A stretch of DNA of 64,000 nt, taken from assembly GCF_017635265.1 (NCBI RefSeq), contig NZ_JAGBLU010000028.1:58668-122667 (forward strand). Reading direction: 5' to 3'. Position numbers and translations under genes: made by a program. The notes under the pieces were generated by a model that worked only from the letters and a program-made list of their open reading frames with translations, ran no database searches and was not told the DNA's origin. Position 1 is the first letter of the stretch. Each line of letters opens with the position of its first letter. The DNA comes from Butyrivibrio sp. (GTDB taxonomy: Bacteria; Bacillota; Clostridia; Lachnospirales; Lachnospiraceae). Shown here in pieces: positions 4,046-14,056 of this stretch.

Positions 4046-5809
4046 ATGAGACAAAAGACATATCGTTTTTACGACTGTAATGAATTAAGTAGCATTATTA
4101 GTGAGATTACATCTTCAAAAGAGTATATTTCTGCATCGGGAATTTTGATGCAGCTTTATAATCCAAGGCTTGATATTGACGAGGATCTTCTTGTAGGGGA
4201 GCTGAATGAAAAATGCTCCAAAGCTTTGCTTACCGGTATGACTGTTGCAAGCATAGCGGAAGAGGAATTTGATATTAAGGATGATCCGGTTCAGTTATCT
4301 GTGTCCTATTTCTTTAAGACAAAGCTATATAGATATGAATATGATCTTAATACCACTACTATGTTTGTGGCAGGAAGAATCATGAATGAGAAAATAGACG
4401 AGCTTGGTGACGTAAAATGTATGCAGACATTTTATGTTACTCCAAGTTCGTCTATTTTAGTTTATTCAAAGGAATTCAGTCATCAGGATCTTCCGGTATT
4501 TGGAGCCAAGGCAGGAAGAAATATAAGAGCTTTAAATACTGCCCATGTTTATGGCAGCAAATGCTACAATAATGCAATTGTTTCCGTGGTTTTTCAGAGT
4601 AAGGACCTTTCGTTATTTATGGATAATAACCTTGACTGGGAAGAAATCGGAAATGAGATGGTTGTCTCAAAGGTTGATGGAGACAGAATTGTGGCAGAAA
4701 TTGACGGAAAGCCGGCAATAGAAGTTTACAGGAAATATCTTAAAGTCTCTCCCAATAAGTTTTTTGTCCAGAATGTATGCGAGTTTCCACTGGTATTTAA
4801 AAGAAACGAAAGCATAATTGCAAGAGTTCCGCAAGGATTTACTGAAGATGGAGGAATAGTTTTTAATTCTGATGTGTTTCAGGGAGAGCATTTTAGGCTT
4901 TCATACTCATTTCCAGAGAAGCTTTTAAAAAAGACTGCTGTAGAGATAAGTGCATTTTCCTGGCTGAGACCGGAGGGAGTTTATTTTTATGAATGTGGTA
5001 ACAGACAGAGATTCTTAGGCGCAATATACAAAAAAGAATACGAGATTTTCAGAGAGTTTTTCCCTGAGTATTCAAGTACGGCAGGATATTCCGAACTATT
5101 TGCCGTTCCCAAAAGCCCGATATCAGATCTTAATAGTGCTCTTGTTACGGTTGGACTTACTGAAAATAAATGCTCAAGAGATCTTTTTGTCCCGGGAGAT
5201 TGCGGACTGTCCATTGAGGAAGATGATGATAATAACAGAGAAATTCCATTTTTTGAAAGATTACTTACATTTTTTGAAAGCACATCAAAGGATCTTGATG
5301 AGCTGAACAAAAAGCTTGGAAAGGTTGCTTTTACTGATCAGCTTACCAAGATTTATAACAGATGGGAGCTTGAGCGAAATATAAATGAAGCTATAACACT
5401 TGCTCAAAGCGGAAAGAAATATTCCTTATTATTCTTTGATATAGATCATTTCAAACATGTTAATGATACATATGGGCATGATGTGGGTGATACTGTTCTT
5501 AAAAGTATAGTTAACATTGTCAGGGGGTTTATTGAAGAAAATCATGTTTTTGGAAGATGGGGCGGAGAGGAGTTTTTATATCTTTTTCCAAATGAGGATA
5601 TTGACAAGGCAGTGGAGCTTGCAGAGAAAATACGGCAGACAATTGATGATACCTGCTTTGTTACTGTAAGGCATCTTACTGTGAGTATTGGAGTCACAAT
5701 GATTCGGGCAGATGACACGATAGAATCATTTGTAAAAAGAGCTGATGAGGCTTTGTATAAGGCAAAAGAAACAGGAAGAAATAGAGTTGTAATAGCAGAT
5801 TTTACGTAA
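4046..5809 (+). CDS. FIST sensor domain - GGDEF diguanylate cyclase
   Basis: Predicted cytosolic enzyme making cyclic di-GMP from two GTP. The 587 residues split into an N-terminal FIST-N/FIST-C region (about 30-370; proposed small-ligand sensing domain), a short acidic and coiled linker (about 390-430), and a C-terminal GGDEF domain (about 425-585) beginning FTDQLTKIYNRWELER. The active-site signature is GGEEF at residues 506-510, so catalysis is expected. The inhibitory I-site (RxxD upstream of the signature) is not evident, suggesting little product inhibition. No membrane segments. It sits directly upstream of the RiPP locus but has its own start context, and a link is only positional. 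FIST assignment is by overall pattern, GGDEF by motif. Confidence 0.88.
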   Translation: MRQKTYRFYDCNELSSIISEITSSKEYISASGILMQLYNPRLDIDEDLLVGELNEKCSKALLTGMTVASIAEEEFDIKDDPVQLSVSYFFKTKLYRYEYDLNTTTMFVAGRIMNEKIDELGDVKCMQTFYVTPSSSILVYSKEFSHQDLPVFGAKAGRNIRALNTAHVYGSKCYNNAIVSVVFQSKDLSLFMDNNLDWEEIGNEMVVSKVDGDRIVAEIDGKPAIEVYRKYLKVSPNKFFVQNVCEFPLVFKRNESIIARVPQGFTEDGGIVFNSDVFQGEHFRLSYSFPEKLLKKTAVEISAFSWLRPEGVYFYECGNRQRFLGAIYKKEYEIFREFFPEYSSTAGYSELFAVPKSPISDLNSALVTVGLTENKCSRDLFVPGDCGLSIEEDDDNNREIPFFERLLTFFESTSKDLDELNKKLGKVAFTDQLTKIYNRWELERNINEAITLAQSGKKYSLLFFDIDHFKHVNDTYGHDVGDTVLKSIVNIVRGFIEENHVFGRWGGEEFLYLFPNEDIDKAVELAEKIRQTIDDTCFVTVRHLTVSIGVTMIRADDTIESFVKRADEALYKAKETGRNRVVIADFT

Positions 5810-5878
5810 AGTTAATAAAATCTTAAACATTTAGATGTTAAAATTAATATTATTATTCGTTTAAGGGGACAACTAGAT

Positions 5879-7285
5879 TTGTTTTACAGACTTCCGGATT
5901 ATATTGCTCTGCGCAGTTGGAGCGACGTACAGCGTGCATATTATGTAAGAAATCAGATTGATGCAAGGCCGCTTTCGCAAAAACAATTTGAAGTTATGCT
6001 TTTGTGTGACGGTGAACATGATATTAGTTTGGATTCCACTGTATTACAGCTTGAAGCTTTGAAGTTGATCATGCCATGTGATAAAGGAGAATATTCATCG
6101 CAGTGGTCGTCCTATCGTAAGTATGACAATAAATATTTTCCCAAAATGAATCTTATGATCACAGGGAAATGCAATTATAACTGTCTTCATTGCTTTAATG
6201 CTGCTGACAATGCACCTATTATGACGGAGTGGAGTTTTGAAGACATAGTCAAACTACTTGATCAATGTGTTGAATGTGGTATAAATGCTTTCACGATAAC
6301 AGGTGGCGAGCCTATGGCTCATAAGCATTTTCTTGATATTCTTACAGAAATACATAAACGAAATATGTTTGTGGCAGAAATAAACACCAATGGTTTTTAT
6401 ATTACGCAGGATATTCTGGATAAAATTAAAGCAATTGGATGTCGACCTCACATGAAGATTTCTTTTGATGGAGTCGGGCACCATGATTATATGAGGAATT
6501 TCAAAGGTGCAGAAGAGATTGCACTAAATGCAATGAAGCTATGTGTTGATAATGGCTTTGATGTTATGTCTCAAACACAGGTTCACAGGAAAAATCTGGA
6601 TTCCATGCTTGAAACGGCAAAGCTGCTTGAAAGCATTGGGGTATATAAAATGAGGATCATAAGAACTACCGAGACACCCAGATGGGCTCAAAATGCTCCC
6701 GATGCATCTTTGCCAATTGAAGAATACTATGACTCAATGCTCGAACTTATCAGGCAGTACATAAAAAGTGATATGCATATGATTCTGACTATTTGGCAGT
6801 TTGCGCAGATTCATCCAAAGAGCCACGATTATGTAATGGAACCTGTATATACACCTGCCGGTACCTACAGGGGCAGCAAACCCGTGTGTAAAGGTAGCAG
6901 GGCTATGATTGCAGTTACCTCTTCCGGGGAAATTGTTCCATGCAATCAGGTTTCCGGAGTGCTTAAGGATTTAAATATATCAATGGGCAATCTGCATGAT
7001 AAGAAGTTAAAAGAACTTATCTCCGGTGGTACTTATCTTGAAAGGGTGTGTCAGACTGTAGCTGATCTTAAAGAAAATAGTTCTAAATGCGGAAGCTGCA
7101 AATACTTTGTGAATTGTACCGGCGGCTGCAGGGCTATGGGGCTTTTATATTCTGGTAAAAATATGGATTTTAATGCTCCGGATATAACTAAGTGTTATTT
7201 CTTTGAAAACGGATGGCACAAAAAGCTTTTAGAGGCTCTTGAGGGATGGACAAATCTGTCTCCAATGGATACTGAAATTATCTGA
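5879..7285 (+). CDS. Radical SAM/SPASM RiPP maturase
   Basis: Radical S-adenosylmethionine enzyme of 468 aa, first gene of the RiPP locus. The [4Fe-4S] motif CNYNCLHC has cysteines at residues 98, 102 and 105 (CxxxCxxC), followed by the GGEP motif (TITGGEPMAHK). The C-terminal third is a SPASM domain with auxiliary-cluster cysteines (VCKGSR, IVPCNQ, KCGSCKYFVNCTGGC, KCYFF). The first 95 residues resemble the small winged-helix recognition regions of peptide maturases, though this is tentative. Family members install thioether, C-C or other side-chain crosslinks or oxidations on precursor peptides; which reaction is made here cannot be read. The likely start is TTG, with AAGGGG about nine bases upstream; no good ATG is in frame nearby. 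Its end lies 25 bp before the next maturase start. Confidence 0.88.
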   Translation: MFYRLPDYIALRSWSDVQRAYYVRNQIDARPLSQKQFEVMLLCDGEHDISLDSTVLQLEALKLIMPCDKGEYSSQWSSYRKYDNKYFPKMNLMITGKCNYNCLHCFNAADNAPIMTEWSFEDIVKLLDQCVECGINAFTITGGEPMAHKHFLDILTEIHKRNMFVAEINTNGFYITQDILDKIKAIGCRPHMKISFDGVGHHDYMRNFKGAEEIALNAMKLCVDNGFDVMSQTQVHRKNLDSMLETAKLLESIGVYKMRIIRTTETPRWAQNAPDASLPIEEYYDSMLELIRQYIKSDMHMILTIWQFAQIHPKSHDYVMEPVYTPAGTYRGSKPVCKGSRAMIAVTSSGEIVPCNQVSGVLKDLNISMGNLHDKKLKELISGGTYLERVCQTVADLKENSSKCGSCKYFVNCTGGCRAMGLLYSGKNMDFNAPDITKCYFFENGWHKKLLEALEGWTNLSPMDTEII

Positions 7286-7310
7286 TAAAGAGGAGGGTGA
7301 ATACACAGGA

Positions 7311-8738
7311 ATGGTGGAGAGAAAGCTGATAATAAGTAAGGACTTTAATGATCCTGAGTATGCTAAAAATGTTGCCAACACAAAGAGAGTTTTAGAAAAA
7401 TTTACGTTGGATAAGGATTTTAACAGTTTATATAAAGAAAACCCGGATAAAGCCCTGGCAGAAGCAGGAATAGAGGTAGATGCAAAGTCTATTGCAATGC
7501 TCTTAAATGATGAAGAAAGTAAAAAAACAAGAAAGGCTCTTCTTGATGGCAGCGTGAAGCTTTTTGATCTTCCGGATTGCTATGTTCGCTATATGTTGTT
7601 CATGCAGGAAAAACTGGATTCACGGGAAGAACTTAGGACAAAGCTATGCATACCTGATGAACCAGGTTTTAAAGAATGGCGCGCAAGACAGGAAAGGCGT
7701 TGTTTTATAGAAATGGGATCTAATGCTAAAAAGATGATCCATGCAACGCTAATGTTTGAACTGACTGAAGGGTGCTCTGTTGGATGTCCTTTTTGCGGTG
7801 TGGCAGCAAAGGGGCTTAAGGGGATTTTCAGGCATACTGATGAAAATGCCAGACTTTTTCGCGACATTCTTAAGCGCATGCATAAGCTTATAGGTGATGC
7901 TGCAGGTTACGGGACTTTGTACTATTCATGTGAGGGGCTGGATAATCCAGACTATGAAATGTTCATTGAAGATTATTTCAATGAATTTGGAAAAGTACCG
8001 CAGACCACCACTGCCGCATCCACACGTGATGTCGAGCGTACAAGGGCATTGCTCAACTATGGCCTTAAGAATTACCCGCATATTGATCGTTTTTCTGTAA
8101 TCAGCGCTGAAATGAGAGACATTTTATTTGAAAAATTCTCTCCTGAAGAACTGCTTGATGTAGAACTGTTGCCACAGTTTACTGATGCACCGGCATCTTC
8201 TTTAGTAAAGGCAGGACGAAACCGCGATGAAACGGATCAGGATTCAGTAAACGGAACTATCGCATGCGCTAGTGGTTTTATCATAAACATGCAGGAAAAA
8301 AGTGTGCGACTTATGACGCCTTTTGTATCGGACAAAGATCATCCTACCGGTGAATGGATTCTTGAGAAGGCTTTTTTCTCATCTGCTGATGAGCTTGAGG
8401 AAATTGTAAGGCGCATGATTTCACAGTATATGAATGTGCAGCTTGAACTTGACAGGCCCTGCCTGGCTTCCTGTGATTTTGAACTGGTTAATAAAGATGG
8501 CAAAATATGGGCTATTGGTCATGGTAATGGTATTTCTTCATATGATTCTTTCTTGGATCAGGAAGTGCTTGATAAGCTACTAAGTCTGCTCAAGGAGAAA
8601 AAGTATACGGGATATGAAGTATTAAATCTTTTGCCTGAGGATGTGAATTATTCACTTGTTATATTACTTCTTAAATTCCTTTGGAACTACGGACTTATAC
8701 ATCAATCGCAATCTAAAAAAGAAATGGAGGACATGTAA
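7311..8738 (+). CDS. Radical SAM peptide epimerase, PoyD-like RiPP maturase
   Basis: 475-aa radical SAM protein from the ATG at 7311 (MVERKLIISK); AGGAGG lies 14 bases upstream, rather far. The cluster motif GCSVGCPFCGVAAKG has Cys155, Cys159 and Cys162. The pattern C-S-V-G-C-x-F-C-G and the general layout fit the PoyD/OspD family of radical SAM epimerases, which convert L- to D-residues in proteusin cores; this is from memory of the family, not a search. No SPASM domain is seen. The N-terminal 60 residues (DFNSLYKENPDKALAEAGI) resemble the leader of the precursor encoded next (ELLKKFQDNPEEVLKEAGI), so the enzyme carries a leader-like module. Its stop codon shares one base with the precursor start, implying coupled translation. 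Confidence 0.82.
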   Translation: MVERKLIISKDFNDPEYAKNVANTKRVLEKFTLDKDFNSLYKENPDKALAEAGIEVDAKSIAMLLNDEESKKTRKALLDGSVKLFDLPDCYVRYMLFMQEKLDSREELRTKLCIPDEPGFKEWRARQERRCFIEMGSNAKKMIHATLMFELTEGCSVGCPFCGVAAKGLKGIFRHTDENARLFRDILKRMHKLIGDAAGYGTLYYSCEGLDNPDYEMFIEDYFNEFGKVPQTTTAASTRDVERTRALLNYGLKNYPHIDRFSVISAEMRDILFEKFSPEELLDVELLPQFTDAPASSLVKAGRNRDETDQDSVNGTIACASGFIINMQEKSVRLMTPFVSDKDHPTGEWILEKAFFSSADELEEIVRRMISQYMNVQLELDRPCLASCDFELVNKDGKIWAIGHGNGISSYDSFLDQEVLDKLLSLLKEKKYTGYEVLNLLPEDVNYSLVILLLKFLWNYGLIHQSQSKKEMEDM

Positions 8739-9148
8739 TGAATCAGAACGAACAGAACAAACAAATCAGAATTAAGTATGCAGAGCTTTTGAATCGCTTA
8801 TGGGATGACCCAGAGCTGTTGAAAAAATTTCAGGATAATCCTGAAGAGGTATTAAAGGAAGCTGGAATTCCTACAATTCCAGGTGCTAAGTACCATATTG
8901 TAGCTCCTGAAGATATGAAGCCTATTACAGAGACGGACATTTATCTTCCTTATACGCCAAAACCTGACTCACAGGAGCTCATGGATGAAACACTGGCAAG
9001 CATTACAGGTGGTGATTGCGTATATACTGAGCAGAATATTGTATTTCACTTCCATACTGTTACAGAAACTGAAGCAGTTGCAACCACTACAGCTACAATG
9101 ACAGCAGAGGTTGTAGCAGCTGTAGTTGCAGTTGCAGTTGTAGTATGA
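8738..9148 (+). CDS. Proteusin-type RiPP precursor (nitrile-hydratase-like leader, NHLP)
   Basis: 136-aa precursor peptide. Residues 1-92 form a long leader resembling the nitrile hydratase alpha-subunit (LLNRLWDDPELLKKFQDNPE, then EEVLKEAGIPTIPGAKYHIV) and ending in the double-glycine site ITGG (residues 89-92), where the C39 exporter downstream should cut. The predicted 44-residue core starts DCVYTEQNIVFHFHTVTETE and ends VVAAVVAVAVVV. By count 12 residues are Val, 9 Thr and 8 Ala, with one Cys (residue 94) and no Ser. Such beta-branched and small residues are typical targets of PoyD-type epimerases in polytheonamide-like peptides. It lacks nitrile hydratase metal ligands and is not an enzyme subunit. 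GGAGG lies seven bases before the ATG. A hairpin terminator follows, which would favour high precursor expression over the exporters. Confidence 0.87.
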   Translation: MNQNEQNKQIRIKYAELLNRLWDDPELLKKFQDNPEEVLKEAGIPTIPGAKYHIVAPEDMKPITETDIYLPYTPKPDSQELMDETLASITGGDCVYTEQNIVFHFHTVTETEAVATTTATMTAEVVAAVVAVAVVV

Positions 9149-9162
9149 TTACCAATTGATTG

Positions 9163-9214
9163 AATAAGCCATATTTATGAGCCATGACTGGCTTGTTTAA
9201 TATGGCTTATTTTT
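9163..9214 (+). terminator. Attenuator/terminator between precursor and export genes
   Basis: A 13-bp perfect stem, AATAAGCCATATT (9163-9175) with AATATGGCTTATT (9199-9211), encloses a smaller hairpin AGCCA-TGAC-TGGCT and is followed by a short T-run (9210-9214). It probably stops most transcripts after the precursor gene and lets a fraction read into the exporters. Confidence 0.75.
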
Positions 9215-9236
9215 CAATGAGATAAGGAGCATTATT

Positions 9237-9656
9237 GTGGCAGATAATAGTAAAGGTCCTTATAGAAAAAAAGCGCTGGAAAGAATTACAGATCCGGAAC
9301 AGTTTGGAGATTATTTAAAGGTCATAAATCCTGAAATATGGCTTATTTTTGGTGCAATCTTATCCCTGGTAATAGGTCTTTTTATATGGGGGTCAACAGG
9401 TAATCTTGAGAATCTGGAAGGTGGTATTGCGGTTGTAAAAGATAATACAGCTGTGATAACAGTCAATAACGACAATGTAGAAATAGAATCGGGAATGGAT
9501 GTCCGCGTATATGAAGAAGTTTTTACCATTTCATCTGTCAGTAAGAATGAATATGGCCGAACGGTTGCATATGCACCTGTTTCAGTACCTGATGGCATCT
9601 ATGATGTTGAGATTATTACTGAAAGTATTCATCCTATAGCATTTCTTTTAAGATAG
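9237..9656 (+). CDS. Short NHLM-type HlyD-like secretion adaptor
   Basis: 139-aa single-pass membrane protein. Residues about 34-52 (IWLIFGAILSLVIGLFIWG) form the membrane segment after a basic N-terminus (PYRKKALERITDPEQFGDYL), the arrangement seen in NHLM bacteriocin-system secretion (HlyD family) proteins. The rest is a small beta-rich domain; the long coiled-coil and lipoyl halves of normal membrane-fusion proteins are absent, so it is far shorter than usual (about 250-400 aa). It is not obviously broken: the frame is clean and the next gene follows 16 bp later. The start is GTG with AAGGAG upstream. It would help couple the two ABC exporters to release of the mature peptide. It could instead be an NfeD/OB-fold-like accessory; function is inferred from position. 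Confidence 0.7.
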   Translation: MADNSKGPYRKKALERITDPEQFGDYLKVINPEIWLIFGAILSLVIGLFIWGSTGNLENLEGGIAVVKDNTAVITVNNDNVEIESGMDVRVYEEVFTISSVSKNEYGRTVAYAPVSVPDGIYDVEIITESIHPIAFLLR

Positions 9657-9672
9657 AAAGGCCCTGATTGTA

Positions 9673-11850
9673 ATGACGAAAAAGAATGTAAAGACTCCAT
9701 TAAAAAAGGGAATAGCAAAAGTACCTATAATAATGCAGCTCGAAGCACTGGAGTGTGGGGCAGCATCTCTTTGCATGGTTATGGCGTACTACAAAAAGTG
9801 GATCCCTATCGAAGTTGTAAGAACGGATTGCGGAGTTTCACGTGACGGTGCCAATGCTCTTGCCATAGTAAATGCGGCAAAAAGTTATGGCTTTTCGGTT
9901 CATGCTTATTCCTGGGAAACTGAAAACCTAATTGAATCAGGGCAATTTCCATGTATTATTCACTGGAATTTTCACCATTTTGTTGTACTTAATGGTTTTA
10001 AAGGCAAATATGCCTATATAAATGATCCTGCCAGAGGCCTGGTAAAGGTAACTATGGAGGAATTTGATAATTCTTTTACCGGAGTAGTTATTCTGATAGA
10101 ACCAGGGGAAAATTTTATACCTGAAGGCAAACAAAAAAGCATTCTTGAATTTGCACTTTTAAGGTTAAAAGGCTCTTCTGCAGCTATTCTTTTAGTTGCA
10201 TTTGTGACTATTCTTGCTTCATTATTTGGAATCTTAAATCCTGTTTTTTCCCGAGTATTTATAGATAATCTGCTTACCCGCGATTACCATCAGTGGCTTA
10301 TGCCCTTTATTCTGATAATGACGGTTGTTGCTATAATGCAGATCATTGTTGAATTAGTAAGAGTATTATTTGGGCTTAAGATAAATGGAAAGCTGGCTAT
10401 TATTGGTAGCAGTACTTACATGTGGAAGATATTTCATATTCCCGTTGAGTTTTTTGAACAGAGATCTGCCGGTGATATACAGATTCGAAGAGAGAGTAAT
10501 GAAAGCATAGCAAAGGCCCTTGTAGATATTTGCGGGCCTTTTTTTATCAACGTATTATTACTTGTGGTATATCTTGTGCTTATGCTTAAACATAGCATAC
10601 TACTTACTGCGGTCGGGATAACAAGTCTGGCACTTAGTATGATGGTTGCCAGAAAAGTTTCCAAAGAGAGAGTGAATATTACAAGAGTTATGCAAAGGGA
10701 CACCGCAAAGCTTATATCTGCCACAGCATCAGGTATAGATATGATTGAAACCATAAAGTCAAGCGGGGCAGAAAAAGGTTTTTTCAGAAAATGGGCGTCG
10801 TATCAGGCATCTTATGATGCGCAGCTGATGAAATCAATTAAAGTAAACAACTACATTGGAATGATTCCCAGTTTTATTTCCACCCTGGCAAATTATACGG
10901 TTTTGATACTTGGAATATGGCTGGTAATGAATAAACAGTTTACACTTGGAGCAATGCAGATGTTCCAGGGACTTCTTCAATCATTTATGAATCCTGCATC
11001 TACACTTATTCAGTCCGGGCAAAGTCTTCAGGAAATGAGAACGGAGATGGAGAGAATTGAAGATGTAATGAAGTATCCGGACGATGAAAATGTAAAAAAT
11101 GAAGAAATAGATATTACTGATGCAAATAAACTAAAGGGTAACCTTGAAGTAAGAGATGTGACATTTGGTTATTCGAGACTTGGAAAACCTGTCTTAAAAA
11201 ATTTTTCCATGAAAGTTAATGCTGGAGGAAGCGTCGCTATTGTAGGCATGTCAGGAAGCGGAAAGTCAACAATAGCTAAGCTTATCGCAGGTCTTTATGA
11301 TCCCTGGGAAGGGGATATTTTATTTGATGAAAAGAAAAGAAGCGAGTACCCCCGTGAAGTAATGTCAGGCTCTATAGGTGTTGTAAGCCAGGAAATTACT
11401 CTGTTTGAAGGAACAATCAATCAAAATATCAAGATGTGGGATGATTCCATAGAGGATTTTGAAGTAATCATGGCAGCAAGGGATTCTATGATCCATGATG
11501 ATATTTTGGAAAGAGGTCATGGTTATGATGAAAAAATAATTTCCGGTGGAAGAGATTTGTCCGGCGGACAGTGCCAAAGGCTTGAAATTGCAAGAGTTTT
11601 GGCCCAGACTCCGTCAATCATAATACTTGATGAGGCCACCTCTGCTCTTGATGCAAAGACTGAAAATGAGGTCATGAAGGCTATAAGAAACAGGGGAATT
11701 ACATGTATAGTAATAGCCCACAGACTTTCAACTATCCGTGACTGTGAAGAGATCATCGTGTTGGATAAGGGAGAGATTGTTGAAAAAGGAAACCATGATG
11801 AGCTTATAAGGCTTGGTGGTAAATATCTGGAACTCGTGACAAGTGAGTAA
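9673..11850 (+). CDS. NHLM-type ABC exporter with C39 leader peptidase
   Basis: 725-aa exporter that would remove the leader after GG and pump the core out. The N-terminal peptidase C39 domain (about residues 1-140) has the complete catalytic set: Cys28 (LECGA), His102 (HHFVVLNG) and Asp118 (YINDPARG). A six-helix transmembrane domain (about 160-440) and an ATPase domain follow, with Walker A GMSGSGKST (525-533), signature LSGGQ (629-633), Walker B IIILDEATSALD and the H-loop IVIAHRLST. All ATPase motifs look functional. The start ATG has only a weak site (AAAGG). It lies between the short adaptor and the second ABC protein (3-12 bp gap), so the three are likely one export complex serving the precursor at 8738. 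Confidence 0.93.
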   Translation: MTKKNVKTPLKKGIAKVPIIMQLEALECGAASLCMVMAYYKKWIPIEVVRTDCGVSRDGANALAIVNAAKSYGFSVHAYSWETENLIESGQFPCIIHWNFHHFVVLNGFKGKYAYINDPARGLVKVTMEEFDNSFTGVVILIEPGENFIPEGKQKSILEFALLRLKGSSAAILLVAFVTILASLFGILNPVFSRVFIDNLLTRDYHQWLMPFILIMTVVAIMQIIVELVRVLFGLKINGKLAIIGSSTYMWKIFHIPVEFFEQRSAGDIQIRRESNESIAKALVDICGPFFINVLLLVVYLVLMLKHSILLTAVGITSLALSMMVARKVSKERVNITRVMQRDTAKLISATASGIDMIETIKSSGAEKGFFRKWASYQASYDAQLMKSIKVNNYIGMIPSFISTLANYTVLILGIWLVMNKQFTLGAMQMFQGLLQSFMNPASTLIQSGQSLQEMRTEMERIEDVMKYPDDENVKNEEIDITDANKLKGNLEVRDVTFGYSRLGKPVLKNFSMKVNAGGSVAIVGMSGSGKSTIAKLIAGLYDPWEGDILFDEKKRSEYPREVMSGSIGVVSQEITLFEGTINQNIKMWDDSIEDFEVIMAARDSMIHDDILERGHGYDEKIISGGRDLSGGQCQRLEIARVLAQTPSIIILDEATSALDAKTENEVMKAIRNRGITCIVIAHRLSTIRDCEEIIVLDKGEIVEKGNHDELIRLGGKYLELVTSE

Positions 11851-11862
11851 GGGGTGTCTATA

Positions 11863-14043
11863 GTGAGCTGGTTTGAGAATCAATTACAACAAAAGAAAGA
11901 ATATGATCAGCAGCGCTTTGAAGATTCATTCTATCATGCTGCCGGTGCAGTCCTTGGACGAGGCGCAGCAAAAACAATTGAAAATGAACATATAGTATCC
12001 ACGAATACTATTCAGGATATTCTTAAGTACTATAACTTAAAAGAAGAAGATATCCCAAGTGCTCTGACAAGTCATAAGGAAAAGCTTGAATATTGCCTTA
12101 GAAAACACGGAATATACAGCAGAGAGATATCTTTGTCTGAAAAGTGGTACAAGGATGCATTTGGCCCAATAATGGGATATAGCAAGACAGATGACAAGCC
12201 GGTTGCTCTTTTGCCCGGTAAGATAGCTGGTTATTATCATATTGATTATACGAGAAACAAAAAGATATGGATAAATAAGGAGAATGCAAAAGAGTTAAAA
12301 TCTGATGCCTATTGTTTTTACAGGCCTCTTCCTCAAAAGGCTCTAAAGCTTAGACATCTTATGAGCTATATAAAAAGTTATATTGATATTGGTGATATTG
12401 TGCTTCTTATTCTATCAGCTCTTGTGCTTACTCTTGTTGGACTTTTGTTTCCAAGATATACCAAAGCTCTTACAGGCCCAATACTGATGGATGGAAATGA
12501 GAAAATACTTATATCCATGATTCTTTGCATATTGTTTACGGCTATTTCATCTCAGCTTTTCACATCCATAAAAGGAGTATTATATCAAAGATTGATGTAT
12601 AAACCAGCTCTGGGGCTTCAGGCTGCTATGATAATGCGCATGCTGAGCCTCCCGGCAAGCTTTTTTAAAAGTTATTCCACCGGTGAACTTTTAAATCGTT
12701 TACAGGCTGTAAATTCAATATGTGGGCTGCTTATCGGAACTTTTCTTGGGACAGGTCTTATGTCAGTTGCCTCACTTTTATATTTGCCTCAGATTTTTCA
12801 GTATGCGCCGGCTCTTACTATCCCGGTAATACTGGTACTTATAATTACAGTGGTAAATGGTACAATTACAGTTCTTTTACAGATGAGAGTCAGTGAGAGA
12901 CAGATGGCTTTAAAAGCAAAGGAATCTGGAGTAAGTTATTCTGTAATAAGTGGAATGTCCAAGATTAAACTGGCCGGGGCTGAAAAAAGATTTTTTGCCA
13001 GATGGCTTAAGGTATATGCGGATTCTGTGCAGCTTGTATATTCACCTCCGACATTTCTTAAGGTGAACAGCGTGATCACCCTTGGTGTTGGACTTATAGC
13101 AAATGTTATACTATATTTTCTGGCTGTGGAAAGCAATATGAGCCAGTCTGATTTTTATGCATTTACTGTATCTTACAGCATGGTTTTAGGAGCTTTTAAT
13201 TCTCTTGCAGGCGTGGCACTTTCAGGAGGTCAGATCAAGCCTCTTTTGGAAATGGCTAAACCGTTTCTTGATGAAGTTCCGGAGGCTTCTGATAACCGCG
13301 AAGAGGTATTCAGGCTTTCCGGAAGCATTGAATTAAGTCATGTTAGTTTCAAGTATGAAGAACATTCGCCATATATTTTAAATGATCTGTCTTTGAAAAT
13401 TAAAAGTGGAGAATATGTGGCAATAGTTGGAAAAACCGGATGTGGTAAGTCTACACTGGTAAGATTGCTGCTTGGGTTTGAAAAGCCCAGGAAGGGATCA
13501 ATTTTTTATGGCAAAAAAAATATAAACAGTTTGGATCTTAGTTCACTAAGAAGACATATAGGCGTTGTAATGCAGAATGGAAGATTATTCCAGGGGGATA
13601 TATATTCCAATATTGTGATATCTGCTCCGGAACTTAATCTCGACGCTGCATGGAAAGCAGCAGAAATAGCTGGTATAGCAGATGACATCAGAGCAATGCC
13701 TATGGGAATGAATACTATGCTCTCAGAGGGGCAGCTTGATATCTCAGGAGGGCAGAAGCAGCGCATTATGATAGCCAGAGCCATAGCTCCAAAACCAAAG
13801 ATTTTGATATTTGATGAAGCTACAAGTGCACTTGATAATCTTACCCAGAAAAAGGTGAGCGATGCTTTAGATGAGATGGGGTGTACCAGAATAGTTATAG
13901 CTCACAGACTTTCCACTATCAAAAATTGTGACCGCATTCTTGTGATGGATAACGGAAAAATAATTGAAAGTGGAAAATATGATGATCTTATGGCTTTAAA
14001 TGGCTTTTTCACTGAACTCGTAAAAAGGCAAAAGCTTGATTAG
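11863..14043 (+). CDS. NHLM-type ABC exporter, second subunit (no peptidase)
   Basis: About 726-aa ABC half-exporter, partner of the preceding C39 exporter. The first 160 residues are a hydrophilic domain without the C39 catalytic Cys/His pattern, as in the second ABC protein of NHLM systems. A transmembrane domain (about 175-440) and ATPase domain follow. Motifs, numbered from the alternative GTG at 11854: Walker A GKTGCGKST (526-534), signature ISGGQ (630-634), Walker B ILIFDEATSALD, H-loop IVIAHRLST. Two GTG starts are possible: 11854, or 11863, preferred because AAGGGG lies eight bases before it. The gene directly follows the first exporter and ends the RiPP operon, meeting the convergent ACT gene 13 bp later without a visible terminator. 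Confidence 0.9.
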   Translation: MSWFENQLQQKKEYDQQRFEDSFYHAAGAVLGRGAAKTIENEHIVSTNTIQDILKYYNLKEEDIPSALTSHKEKLEYCLRKHGIYSREISLSEKWYKDAFGPIMGYSKTDDKPVALLPGKIAGYYHIDYTRNKKIWINKENAKELKSDAYCFYRPLPQKALKLRHLMSYIKSYIDIGDIVLLILSALVLTLVGLLFPRYTKALTGPILMDGNEKILISMILCILFTAISSQLFTSIKGVLYQRLMYKPALGLQAAMIMRMLSLPASFFKSYSTGELLNRLQAVNSICGLLIGTFLGTGLMSVASLLYLPQIFQYAPALTIPVILVLIITVVNGTITVLLQMRVSERQMALKAKESGVSYSVISGMSKIKLAGAEKRFFARWLKVYADSVQLVYSPPTFLKVNSVITLGVGLIANVILYFLAVESNMSQSDFYAFTVSYSMVLGAFNSLAGVALSGGQIKPLLEMAKPFLDEVPEASDNREEVFRLSGSIELSHVSFKYEEHSPYILNDLSLKIKSGEYVAIVGKTGCGKSTLVRLLLGFEKPRKGSIFYGKKNINSLDLSSLRRHIGVVMQNGRLFQGDIYSNIVISAPELNLDAAWKAAEIAGIADDIRAMPMGMNTMLSEGQLDISGGQKQRIMIARAIAPKPKILIFDEATSALDNLTQKKVSDALDEMGCTRIVIAHRLSTIKNCDRILVMDNGKIIESGKYDDLMALNGFFTELVKRQKLD

Positions 14044-14056
14044 TTTTTTGTGGGCT

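What the first reader, a model, noticed from the sequence alone, without database searches (positions are those of the whole stretch)
5879..14043. Complete proteusin/NHLM RiPP locus with a Val/Ala/Thr-rich core
Seen: two radical SAM genes, a 136-aa precursor with nitrile-hydratase-like leader and ITGG site, a short HlyD-like protein, a C39 ABC exporter and a second ABC exporter, in one direction with tiny gaps. The core is 29/44 Val, Thr or Ala and ends VVAAVVAVAVVV. Known: NHLP precursors with PoyD-type epimerases give D-residue-containing proteusins such as polytheonamide. Inference: the product is a hydrophobic peptide with several D-residues, possibly membrane-active. The combination with a SPASM maturase in a gut-type Firmicute may be new.
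Basis: partly seen in the sequence, partly recalled or inferred. Interest (0 to 1): 0.85.

Follow-up and report, generated by a model that had tools for sequence, protein, structure and literature searches.

The report
Gut bacterial D-amino-acid peptide cassette
A six-gene cassette in an uncultured gut-type bacterium looks built to make, partly mirror-flip and export a greasy 44-residue peptide; it belongs to a known kind (proteusins) but carries an extra radical enzyme of unknown chemistry.

Summary
In detail: two radical-SAM genes, a 136-aa precursor, a mini-HlyD and two ABC exporters lie on one strand at 5879-14043. The second radical-SAM protein is a PoyD-type epimerase (366.9 bits, cut-off 325). 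The core (29 of 44 V/T/A) is not a chance repeat: 25 of 49 precursor cores found near PoyD genes share a T-rich, AE[VA], aliphatic-tail layout (at most 12 in shuffles). Six genus relatives lack the genes at this site, and homology with two of them breaks at 5797 and 14056: the cassette came or went as one unit. It is a mosaic: epimerase nearest an Oscillospiraceae gene, exporters of the genus's own type, SPASM maturase 55% identical to one beside a lanthipeptide synthetase. Proteusins in rumen Firmicutes and an epimerase+SPASM cluster (plp) are already in print; four other loci here have neighbouring pairs. Open is the SPASM chemistry, perhaps on the head DCVYTEQNIVFHFH. Side result: many PoyD enzymes carry an N-terminal segment resembling the proteusin leader. 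D-residues, cleavage and bioactivity are inferred; structure prediction could not be run.

The parts
5798..14055 (.). whole cassette, absent at this place in close relatives
   Evidence: blastn of the empty sites of L193 and L195 against the window stops at 5797 and resumes at 14056; none of 6 relatives' sites holds a cassette gene by tblastn, E up to 1e-15
5879..7285 (+). radical SAM/SPASM peptide maturase, 468 aa, CX3CX2C (CNYNCLHC) and, by eye, a complete 7-Cys SPASM pattern; chemistry unassigned
   Evidence: Pfam PF04055, PF13186; none of the 25 NCBIfam hits shown (of 75) reaches its cut-off, best AhbD 112.1 of 500 bits; 55% identical to L162 homologue
7311..8738 (+). PoyD-type radical SAM peptide epimerase (ORF listed from TTG 7239; ATG 7311 preferred by inference)
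   Evidence: TIGR04517 366.9 bits, cut-off 325; Cys343 (numbered from 7239) conserved in 98 of 99
7404..7481 (+). leader-like segment in the epimerase's N-terminus (residues about 56-81 numbered from 7239)
   Evidence: hhalign of leaders against PoyD N-termini, probability 93%, 26 columns; NCBIfam TIGR04509 21.3 bits at residues 46-99, below cut-off 34
8738..9148 (+). precursor, 136 aa: leader to ITGG (92 aa), core 44 aa DCVYTEQNIVFHFHTVTETEAVATTTATMTAEVVAAVVAVAVVV
9014..9145 (+). core-coding stretch: head DCVYTEQNIVFHFH, T/E-rich middle, V/A tail
   Evidence: boundary inferred from the GG site
9155..9218 (+). hairpin whose 3' arm ends in a T run, between precursor and exporter genes: attenuator or 3' stabiliser (inference)
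   Evidence: -29.9 kcal/mol, z -8.5, 0 of 200 shuffles as stable; the terminator pattern scan did not list it
9237..9656 (+). mini-HlyD-like membrane protein, 139 aa
   Evidence: TIGR03794 positions 1-74 of 421; 73-160 aa in 17 of 18 fetched exporter loci of the genus
9673..11850 (+). C39-peptidase ABC exporter (NHLM ABC1), expected to cut after GG
   Evidence: TIGR03796 861.4 bits over cut-off; PF03412 111.9 bits
11854..14043 (+). second NHLM ABC exporter subunit (ABC2), no C39 hit
   Evidence: TIGR03797 700.9 bits, just under cut-off 709.4; Pfam

Best explanation
A self-contained proteusin cassette. The PoyD-type epimerase abstracts alpha-hydrogens from V, A and perhaps T/I residues of the core and a conserved cysteine returns hydrogen from the other face, giving several D-residues, mostly in the V/A tail. 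The SPASM enzyme modifies the polar, aromatic head DCVYTEQNIVFHFH, most economically by linking its only cysteine to a nearby residue as a thioether (my odds for the thioether about 0.4). The C39 exporter cuts after ITGG and, with mini-HlyD and the second ABC subunit, secretes a 44-residue peptide with a capped head and a membrane-seeking tail, probably acting on other bacteria. Shown by sequence: gene order, families, catalytic motifs, core layout, cassette boundaries. Inferred: D-residues, SPASM target and bond, cleavage, secretion, bioactivity. The confidence is for an epimerised, exported proteusin; the SPASM step is much less sure.
For: Epimerase over the family cut-off; cluster cysteines 99 of 99 and Cys343 98 of 99 in homologues; PMC8326336 (passages) reports one strictly conserved cysteine, Cys372, in almost 70 PoyD homologues, proposed hydrogen donor. 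Leader has LXXXXL at -12 to -7 as reported for proteusins (PMC10858898, passages); hydrophobic at both places in 53 of 53 leaders, L/L in 46. Core layout shared with 25 of 49 cores, shuffled mean 5.7, maximum 12 of 500 shuffles. Epimerase tree: sister to L114, support 98, inside a clade that is 37 of 39 rows Bacillota or Coriobacteriia. Cassette boundaries. Cys, Tyr and Phe of the head are absent from L114's core, whose locus shows no SPASM relative within 8 kb; loci with SPASM relatives have Cys-containing precursors where one was recognised (L067, L077, L081, L082, L083, L094, L120; none recognised in L078, L080). First PDB sequence hit is the sactisynthase SkfB, E 6.8e-11.
Against: Precursor scores below NCBIfam's NHLP cut-off (23.8 of 50.9) as does L114's (26.6), while 8 of 8 other precursors tested pass. 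SPASM reaches no named family's cut-off among hits shown. Cores with Cys and Tyr or Phe also occur where no SPASM gene was found (L092, L005), which weakens the head-as-target argument; L114's core keeps two His. The tail has no strict alternation and no NX5N motif. Many of the 49 cores are close relatives, so the motif count is not independent. No immunity gene recognised by eye. No expression, mass or activity data; the genome is an 88% complete bin.
Confidence: 0.75

Rival explanations
1. Same epimerised proteusin, but the SPASM enzyme makes another bond: a carbon-carbon cyclophane at Tyr/Phe/His of the head, or a further epimerisation or oxidation.
For: Best NCBIfam hits are to diverse SPASM enzymes (heme, ScmE, DynA, WgkB), none over cut-off; head holds Y, F, H, F, H.
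Against: First PDB hit SkfB is a sactisynthase; Cys is present in recognised precursors of related SPASM loci. Neither is decisive.
Confidence: 0.35
2. The SPASM gene is a remnant of a different (Nif11/lanthipeptide-like) pathway carried along in the cassette and does not act on this precursor.
For: The nearest homologue seen (55%, G1164, L162) sits beside a LanM (DUF4135 and LANC_like) and a Nif11-like precursor (18.1 bits, under Pfam's 23.8); L114 has no SPASM relative within 8 kb.
Against: It is the first gene of a tight gene row with intact radical-SAM and SPASM motifs, and PoyD+SPASM neighbours recur in 4 of 80 other loci.
Confidence: 0.17
3. The V/A core is an artefact of a simple repeat read in the wrong frame; the real core is the CSSCSCSCSCS reading of another frame.
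For: Another frame reads SRGCSSCSCSCSCS.
Against: That frame has a stop about 20 codons before it and is not joined to the leader; related precursors end in V/A tails in the leader's own frame.
Confidence: 0.02
4. The product is a signalling peptide rather than a membrane-active bacteriocin.
For: PMC8326336 says proteusin activities are largely unknown (passages).
Against: Strongly aliphatic tail (mean Kyte-Doolittle 2.8 over the last 14 residues).
Confidence: 0.25

Closest known systems
Proteusins with PoyD-type epimerases (polytheonamide, aeronamide, pythonamide, landornamide)
   Same: NHLP-like leader, GG-type site, radical SAM epimerase with conserved Cys; pythonamide's core is epimerised at V10, A12, A14, V16, V18, V29 and V44 or V45 (PMC9259500 passages).
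   Different: No NX5N motif, no C- or N-methyltransferase, no LanM or arginase in the cassette; a SPASM gene instead; C39 exporter in the cassette.
plp cluster of Pleurocapsa (PlpD epimerase + PlpX SPASM splicease)
   Same: Epimerase and SPASM radical SAM enzyme in one cluster with NHLP- or Nif11-like leaders (PMC11002830 passages).
   Different: SPASM here scores 71.1 of 725 bits on TIGR04103 (that TIGR04103 is PlpX's family is recalled); the core has no Tyr-Gly, so no tyramine excision is expected.
L114, Ruminococcaceae bacterium RUG13571
   Same: Epimerase 55-56% identical, precursor 103 bits, V/A-rich stretch near the end of the core.
   Different: No SPASM or ABC-exporter relative within 8 kb (an HlyD_3 family protein, 30.8 bits, lies 4.5 kb upstream); head of core Pro/Glu-rich, without Cys, Tyr or Phe.
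Selenomonadaceae-type proteusin loci (L085-L090, L092, L093, L095-L101, L107)
   Same: PoyD genes, NHLP precursors in nearly all, cores such as ...TTTTLEFEAEVGVVAVAVAVLV.
   Different: Often several precursors per locus, leaders near 130 aa, HlyD 317-318 aa where found, no SPASM relative found.

Membership tests
PoyD-type RiPP epimerase (TIGR04517) | score above the curated cut-off | tested here: met
   366.9 bits, cut-off 325
PoyD-type RiPP epimerase (TIGR04517) | CX3CX2C and one further conserved Cys (hydrogen donor) | tested here: met
   Cys179/183/186 in 99 of 99, Cys343 in 98 of 99; PoyD itself was not aligned
PoyD-type RiPP epimerase (TIGR04517) | L-to-D conversion in the precursor core | not testable with these tools
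   needs D2O co-expression and MS/MS
Proteusin (NHLP-leader RiPP) | leader homologous to NHLP leaders, with LXXXXL before a GG site | tested here: met
   TIGR03793 positions 8-77 of 77, E 2.9e-5, but 23.8 bits against curated cut-off 50.9, so the curated score itself is not reached; LMDETL at -12 to -7; homologue L114
Polytheonamide-type proteusin | NX5N core motif | tested here: not met
   one Asn in the 44-residue core
Polytheonamide-type proteusin | C- and N-methyltransferases in the cluster | tested here: not met
   no such hit among the six cassette genes; the rest of the genome was not searched for them
Landornamide-type proteusin | LanM and peptide arginase in the cluster | tested here: not met
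   no such hit among the six cassette genes
Spliceotide (PlpX) pathway | PlpX-family SPASM protein and Xaa-Tyr-Gly in the core | tested here: not met
   TIGR04103 71.1 of 725 bits; the core's only Tyr is in VYT
NHLM export system | ABC1 with C39 peptidase, ABC2, full-length HlyD | tested here: inconclusive
   ABC1 over cut-off; ABC2 700.9 of 709.4; HlyD 139 aa matching 74 of 421 positions, short as in 17 of 18 fetched loci of the genus

The most novel reading that the evidence does not exclude
A two-part peptide: a head cross-linked by a SPASM enzyme with new chemistry joined to a D/L V-A tail that inserts into membranes, assembled by mixing modules of lanthipeptide and proteusin loci; and PoyD-type epimerases carry their own leader-like segment, which would explain why they are reported to work without the substrate's leader.
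Probability: 0.25. Interest if true: 0.7.

Novelty: new variant of a known kind. Interest (0 to 1): 0.48.

Why it matters
To my knowledge (recalled, and the reviews seen) characterised proteusins come mainly from marine symbionts and cyanobacteria. A compact, self-exporting cassette in a gut-type Firmicute, with one precursor and two maturases, is a tractable system for placing D-residues and finding what an unassigned SPASM clade does. The leader-like segment in the epimerases makes a reported puzzle, leader-independent epimerisation, directly testable by deletion.

Tried and rejected
Rejected: wrong-frame core; decayed HlyD, since short HlyD is the rule in the genus loci fetched; FIST-GGDEF gene (4046-5809) as part of the system, since it lies there without the cassette in 2 of 6 relatives (L193, L195; the other four have neither at this place); polytheonamide, landornamide and spliceotide types. 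Led nowhere: scans of viral contigs with precursor, epimerase and A1 (none confirmed), first genome-contig scan with the epimerase alone, phages with the precursor, PDB for the epimerase (none), Rfam and tRNA (none), repeats of 14 nt or more at the insertion ends (no pair of copies at the two breakpoints). Plasmid tblastn found 49 records, 46 of them Rhizobium, Sinorhizobium or Mesorhizobium; the 20 listed are 34-35% identical epimerases.

Rows dropped: the epimerase set of 99 leaves out L104 (= L005) and L150 (= L020) and ORFs under 400 aa. 59 precursors, 54 with a GG site by my pattern (5 dropped); 53 after removing duplicate L104; 49 with cores of 24 residues or more. The 80 'other loci' are these 77 plus L005, L006, L019, L020, L021 less the two duplicates; L127 and L128 overlap; many contigs are short, so a missing gene may lie outside. 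One search misplaced the GG site in two precursors (L115 9502, L118 787); corrected.

Structure prediction of the epimerase (A2) was never accepted: the machine was busy; no model, no fold search.

Full report
What is there. Six genes on the + strand between 5879 and 14043: a radical SAM/SPASM protein, a PoyD-type radical SAM epimerase (366.9 bits on TIGR04517, cut-off 325), a 136-aa precursor, a 139-aa HlyD-like protein, a C39-peptidase ABC exporter (861.4 bits on TIGR03796, cut-off 853.3) and a second ABC subunit (700.9 on TIGR03797, cut-off 709.4). The epimerase ORF is listed from TTG 7239, but ATG 7311 is the likelier start (inference: it avoids the overlap and gives 475 aa, the length of L114's). 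The SPASM start at TTG 5879 is supported by alignment from residue 1 with its homologue in L162. A strong hairpin lies between precursor and exporter genes (-29.9 kcal/mol, 0 of 200 shuffles as stable), as expected if the precursor is made in excess; the terminator pattern scan did not list it.

It is one unit that came or went. In six genus relatives whose neighbouring ligase gene is 92-97% identical, none of the stretches fetched (17-19 kb) holds a cassette gene by tblastn at E up to 1e-15; a diverged HlyD could be missed at that limit. In two of them (L193, L195) the FIST-GGDEF gene is followed within about 60 bases by the ACT-domain gene; the other four have no FIST-GGDEF match there. For those two, alignment to the window stops at 5797 and resumes at 14056. 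No repeats of 14 nt or more pair the two ends.

It is rare and mosaic. Epimerase matches over the family cut-off: 1 of 79 genomes of the genus (a second, G1195, is below it), 3 of 397 of the family, 1 of 391 of the class, 3 of 398 of the phylum; the window's genome is counted in each. By contrast 49 of 79 genus genomes carry a match to the C39 exporter at E up to 1e-120, the best other one 61% identical. I fetched 18 of the 66 other places listed there (three from this genome); HlyD-like proteins of 73-160 aa are found in 17 of the 18. The epimerase groups with that of L114 (Ruminococcaceae RUG13571; support 98), then L094 (Atopobiaceae; 98), within a 39-row set (97) of which 37 are Bacillota or Coriobacteriia, window included, and 2 Planctomycetia (quick tree, SH-aLRT only). 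The SPASM protein is 55% identical to one in G1164 of the same genus that lies beside a LanM (DUF4135 205.5, LANC_like 100.5 bits) and a Nif11-like precursor (18.1 bits, under Pfam's 23.8).

The core. A scan of named genomes with the epimerase alignment gave 77 loci (capped). Many of their precursors share a layout: T/E/N-rich start, a TT run, AE[VA], aliphatic tail. 25 of 49 cores match TT..AE[VA], against a mean of 5.7 and maximum of 12 in 500 shuffles; 38 of 49 have a last-12 stretch at least 75% V/A/I/L/M/F/G. Examples reach from a cyanobacterium (L116) and Myxococcota (L118) to Selenomonadaceae (L096). The window's AVATTTATMTAEVVAAVVAVAVVV belongs here. This settles the frame and rejects the Cys-Ser reading. 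Relatedness among Selenomonadaceae means the count is not of independent events.

Leader and epimerase. The leader scores under NCBIfam's NHLP cut-off (23.8 of 50.9), as does L114's (26.6), while 8 of 8 other PoyD-linked precursors tested pass. It has LXXXXL exactly at -12 to -7, the place reported for a proteusin leader (PMC10858898, passages). In 99 epimerases the only near-invariant cysteine besides the cluster ones is window Cys343, 98 of 99; the next reach 72 of 99. PMC8326336 (passages) reports a single strictly conserved Cys372 in PoyD, proposed hydrogen donor; I did not align PoyD itself.

SPASM enzyme. None of the 25 NCBIfam hits shown (of 75) reaches its cut-off. PDB sequence search puts the sactisynthase SkfB first (E 6.8e-11). 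Neighbouring PoyD and SPASM-type genes occur in 4 of 80 other loci examined. In L094 and L120 the SPASM protein is related to the window's (198 and 181 bits; in L094 the genes are 0.5 kb apart with a small opposite-strand precursor-like ORF between; Pfam SPASM 21.6 and 17.6 bits, cut-off 21.5). In L006 and L019 the second radical SAM protein is of another branch (28 and 32 bits to the window's; best NCBIfam hits Clo7bot and Cys-rich maturases, below cut-off; SPASM domain TIGR04085 over cut-off shown for L006 only), and L019's epimerase is under the family cut-off. In L159 a 42-bit hit lies about 6 kb from the epimerase. Precursors of these four loci contain Cys; those of L006 and L019 are partly A/V-rich but without the T-run layout. 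The published plp cluster pairs PlpD with PlpX (PMC11002830, passages). So the pairing is known; the pairing with this core layout was not seen elsewhere in the sample. The head DCVYTEQNIVFHFH is my candidate target, since L114, without a SPASM relative within 8 kb, lacks its Cys, Tyr and Phe. Against this, L092 and L005 cores have Cys and Tyr or Phe and no SPASM gene was found there. A thioether from the single Cys is my first guess, at about 0.4.

Leader-like segment in the epimerase. The window epimerase itself hits an NHLP-related model at residues 46-99 (TIGR04509, 21.3 bits, cut-off 34). A profile of precursor leaders scores 5 bits or more on the N-terminal 150 residues of 34 of 99 epimerases, 1 of 990 shuffled and 0 of 402 other long ORFs; at 10 bits 11, 0 and 0 (profile from 51 leaders cut with a crude pattern). 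So 65 of 99 do not reach even 5 bits on their own. Profile-profile alignment: 93% probability, E 3e-7, 26 columns; C-terminal control 0.3%. The shared motif, about DxxFxxxfxxDPxxxLxxxG, lies in the leader's N-terminal helical region; assigning it to the helices reported to matter for OspD is my inference. OspD is reported to act nonetheless without the leader (PMC10858898, passages). A built-in leader could explain that. I made no dedicated literature search for this idea.

Literature. Ten searches over open-licence papers. Proteusin clusters in rumen Firmicutes are in print as counts: 10 in camel rumen, found only in Firmicutes (PMC9177762, passages), 2 in Hungate1000 (PMC13289728, passage); also in cattle epithelium bins, phylum not stated in the passages (PMC12918008). 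None of the passages describes this cassette. Parent 2018 is not held and I did not look up Morinaka 2014, so the core layout may already be described.

Verdict. A real, intact proteusin cassette, present or absent as one unit: known kind, new variant by its SPASM gene and mosaic make-up. Function of the product is not shown.

Noticed in passing
L109:3005-3736: Lachnospiraceae bin (Candidatus Darwinimomas equi) with two PoyD genes and a precursor whose core has a polytheonamide-type NX5N ladder: 7 pairs, 0 of 2000 shuffles as many. Also L138 (8 pairs), L122 (4), L119 (4), L127 (3), each 0 of 2000.
   Followed up: partly
window 7404-7481; PoyD homologues: Epimerases carry an N-terminal segment resembling the proteusin leader's helical region; 34 of 99 reach 5 bits singly.
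   Followed up: partly
L060:12989-13654, L063:12818-13132 (-), L069:435-773, L077:8446-9863: Double-glycine precursors with zinc-ribbon-like CxxC...CxxC cores (by eye) beside NHLM exporters or a SPASM gene; purpose unexplained.
   Followed up: no
L005, L102, L103, L106, L108, L109, L110, L113: Eight loci (seven named Lachnospiraceae) with two neighbouring PoyD genes, one from each of two separate clades of the tree; precursors found in six of the eight have cores of 54-93 residues.
   Followed up: no
L005:8410-11274, L109:3660-8198: Giant repeat-containing protein starting at or just after the precursor's end in two such loci.
   Followed up: no
window 9199-9214 and 9335-9350: The 3' arm of the intergenic hairpin (16 nt, AATATGGCTTATTTTT) is repeated exactly inside the HlyD-like gene.
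   Followed up: no
G000 contigs C45, C84, C117 (L074-L076): The same genome has three more exporter loci of this type; its only PoyD gene found is the window's.
   Followed up: no
L120:7974-9109: The epimerase gene of an Olsenella bin is split over several ORFs beside a SPASM gene; described only.
   Followed up: no
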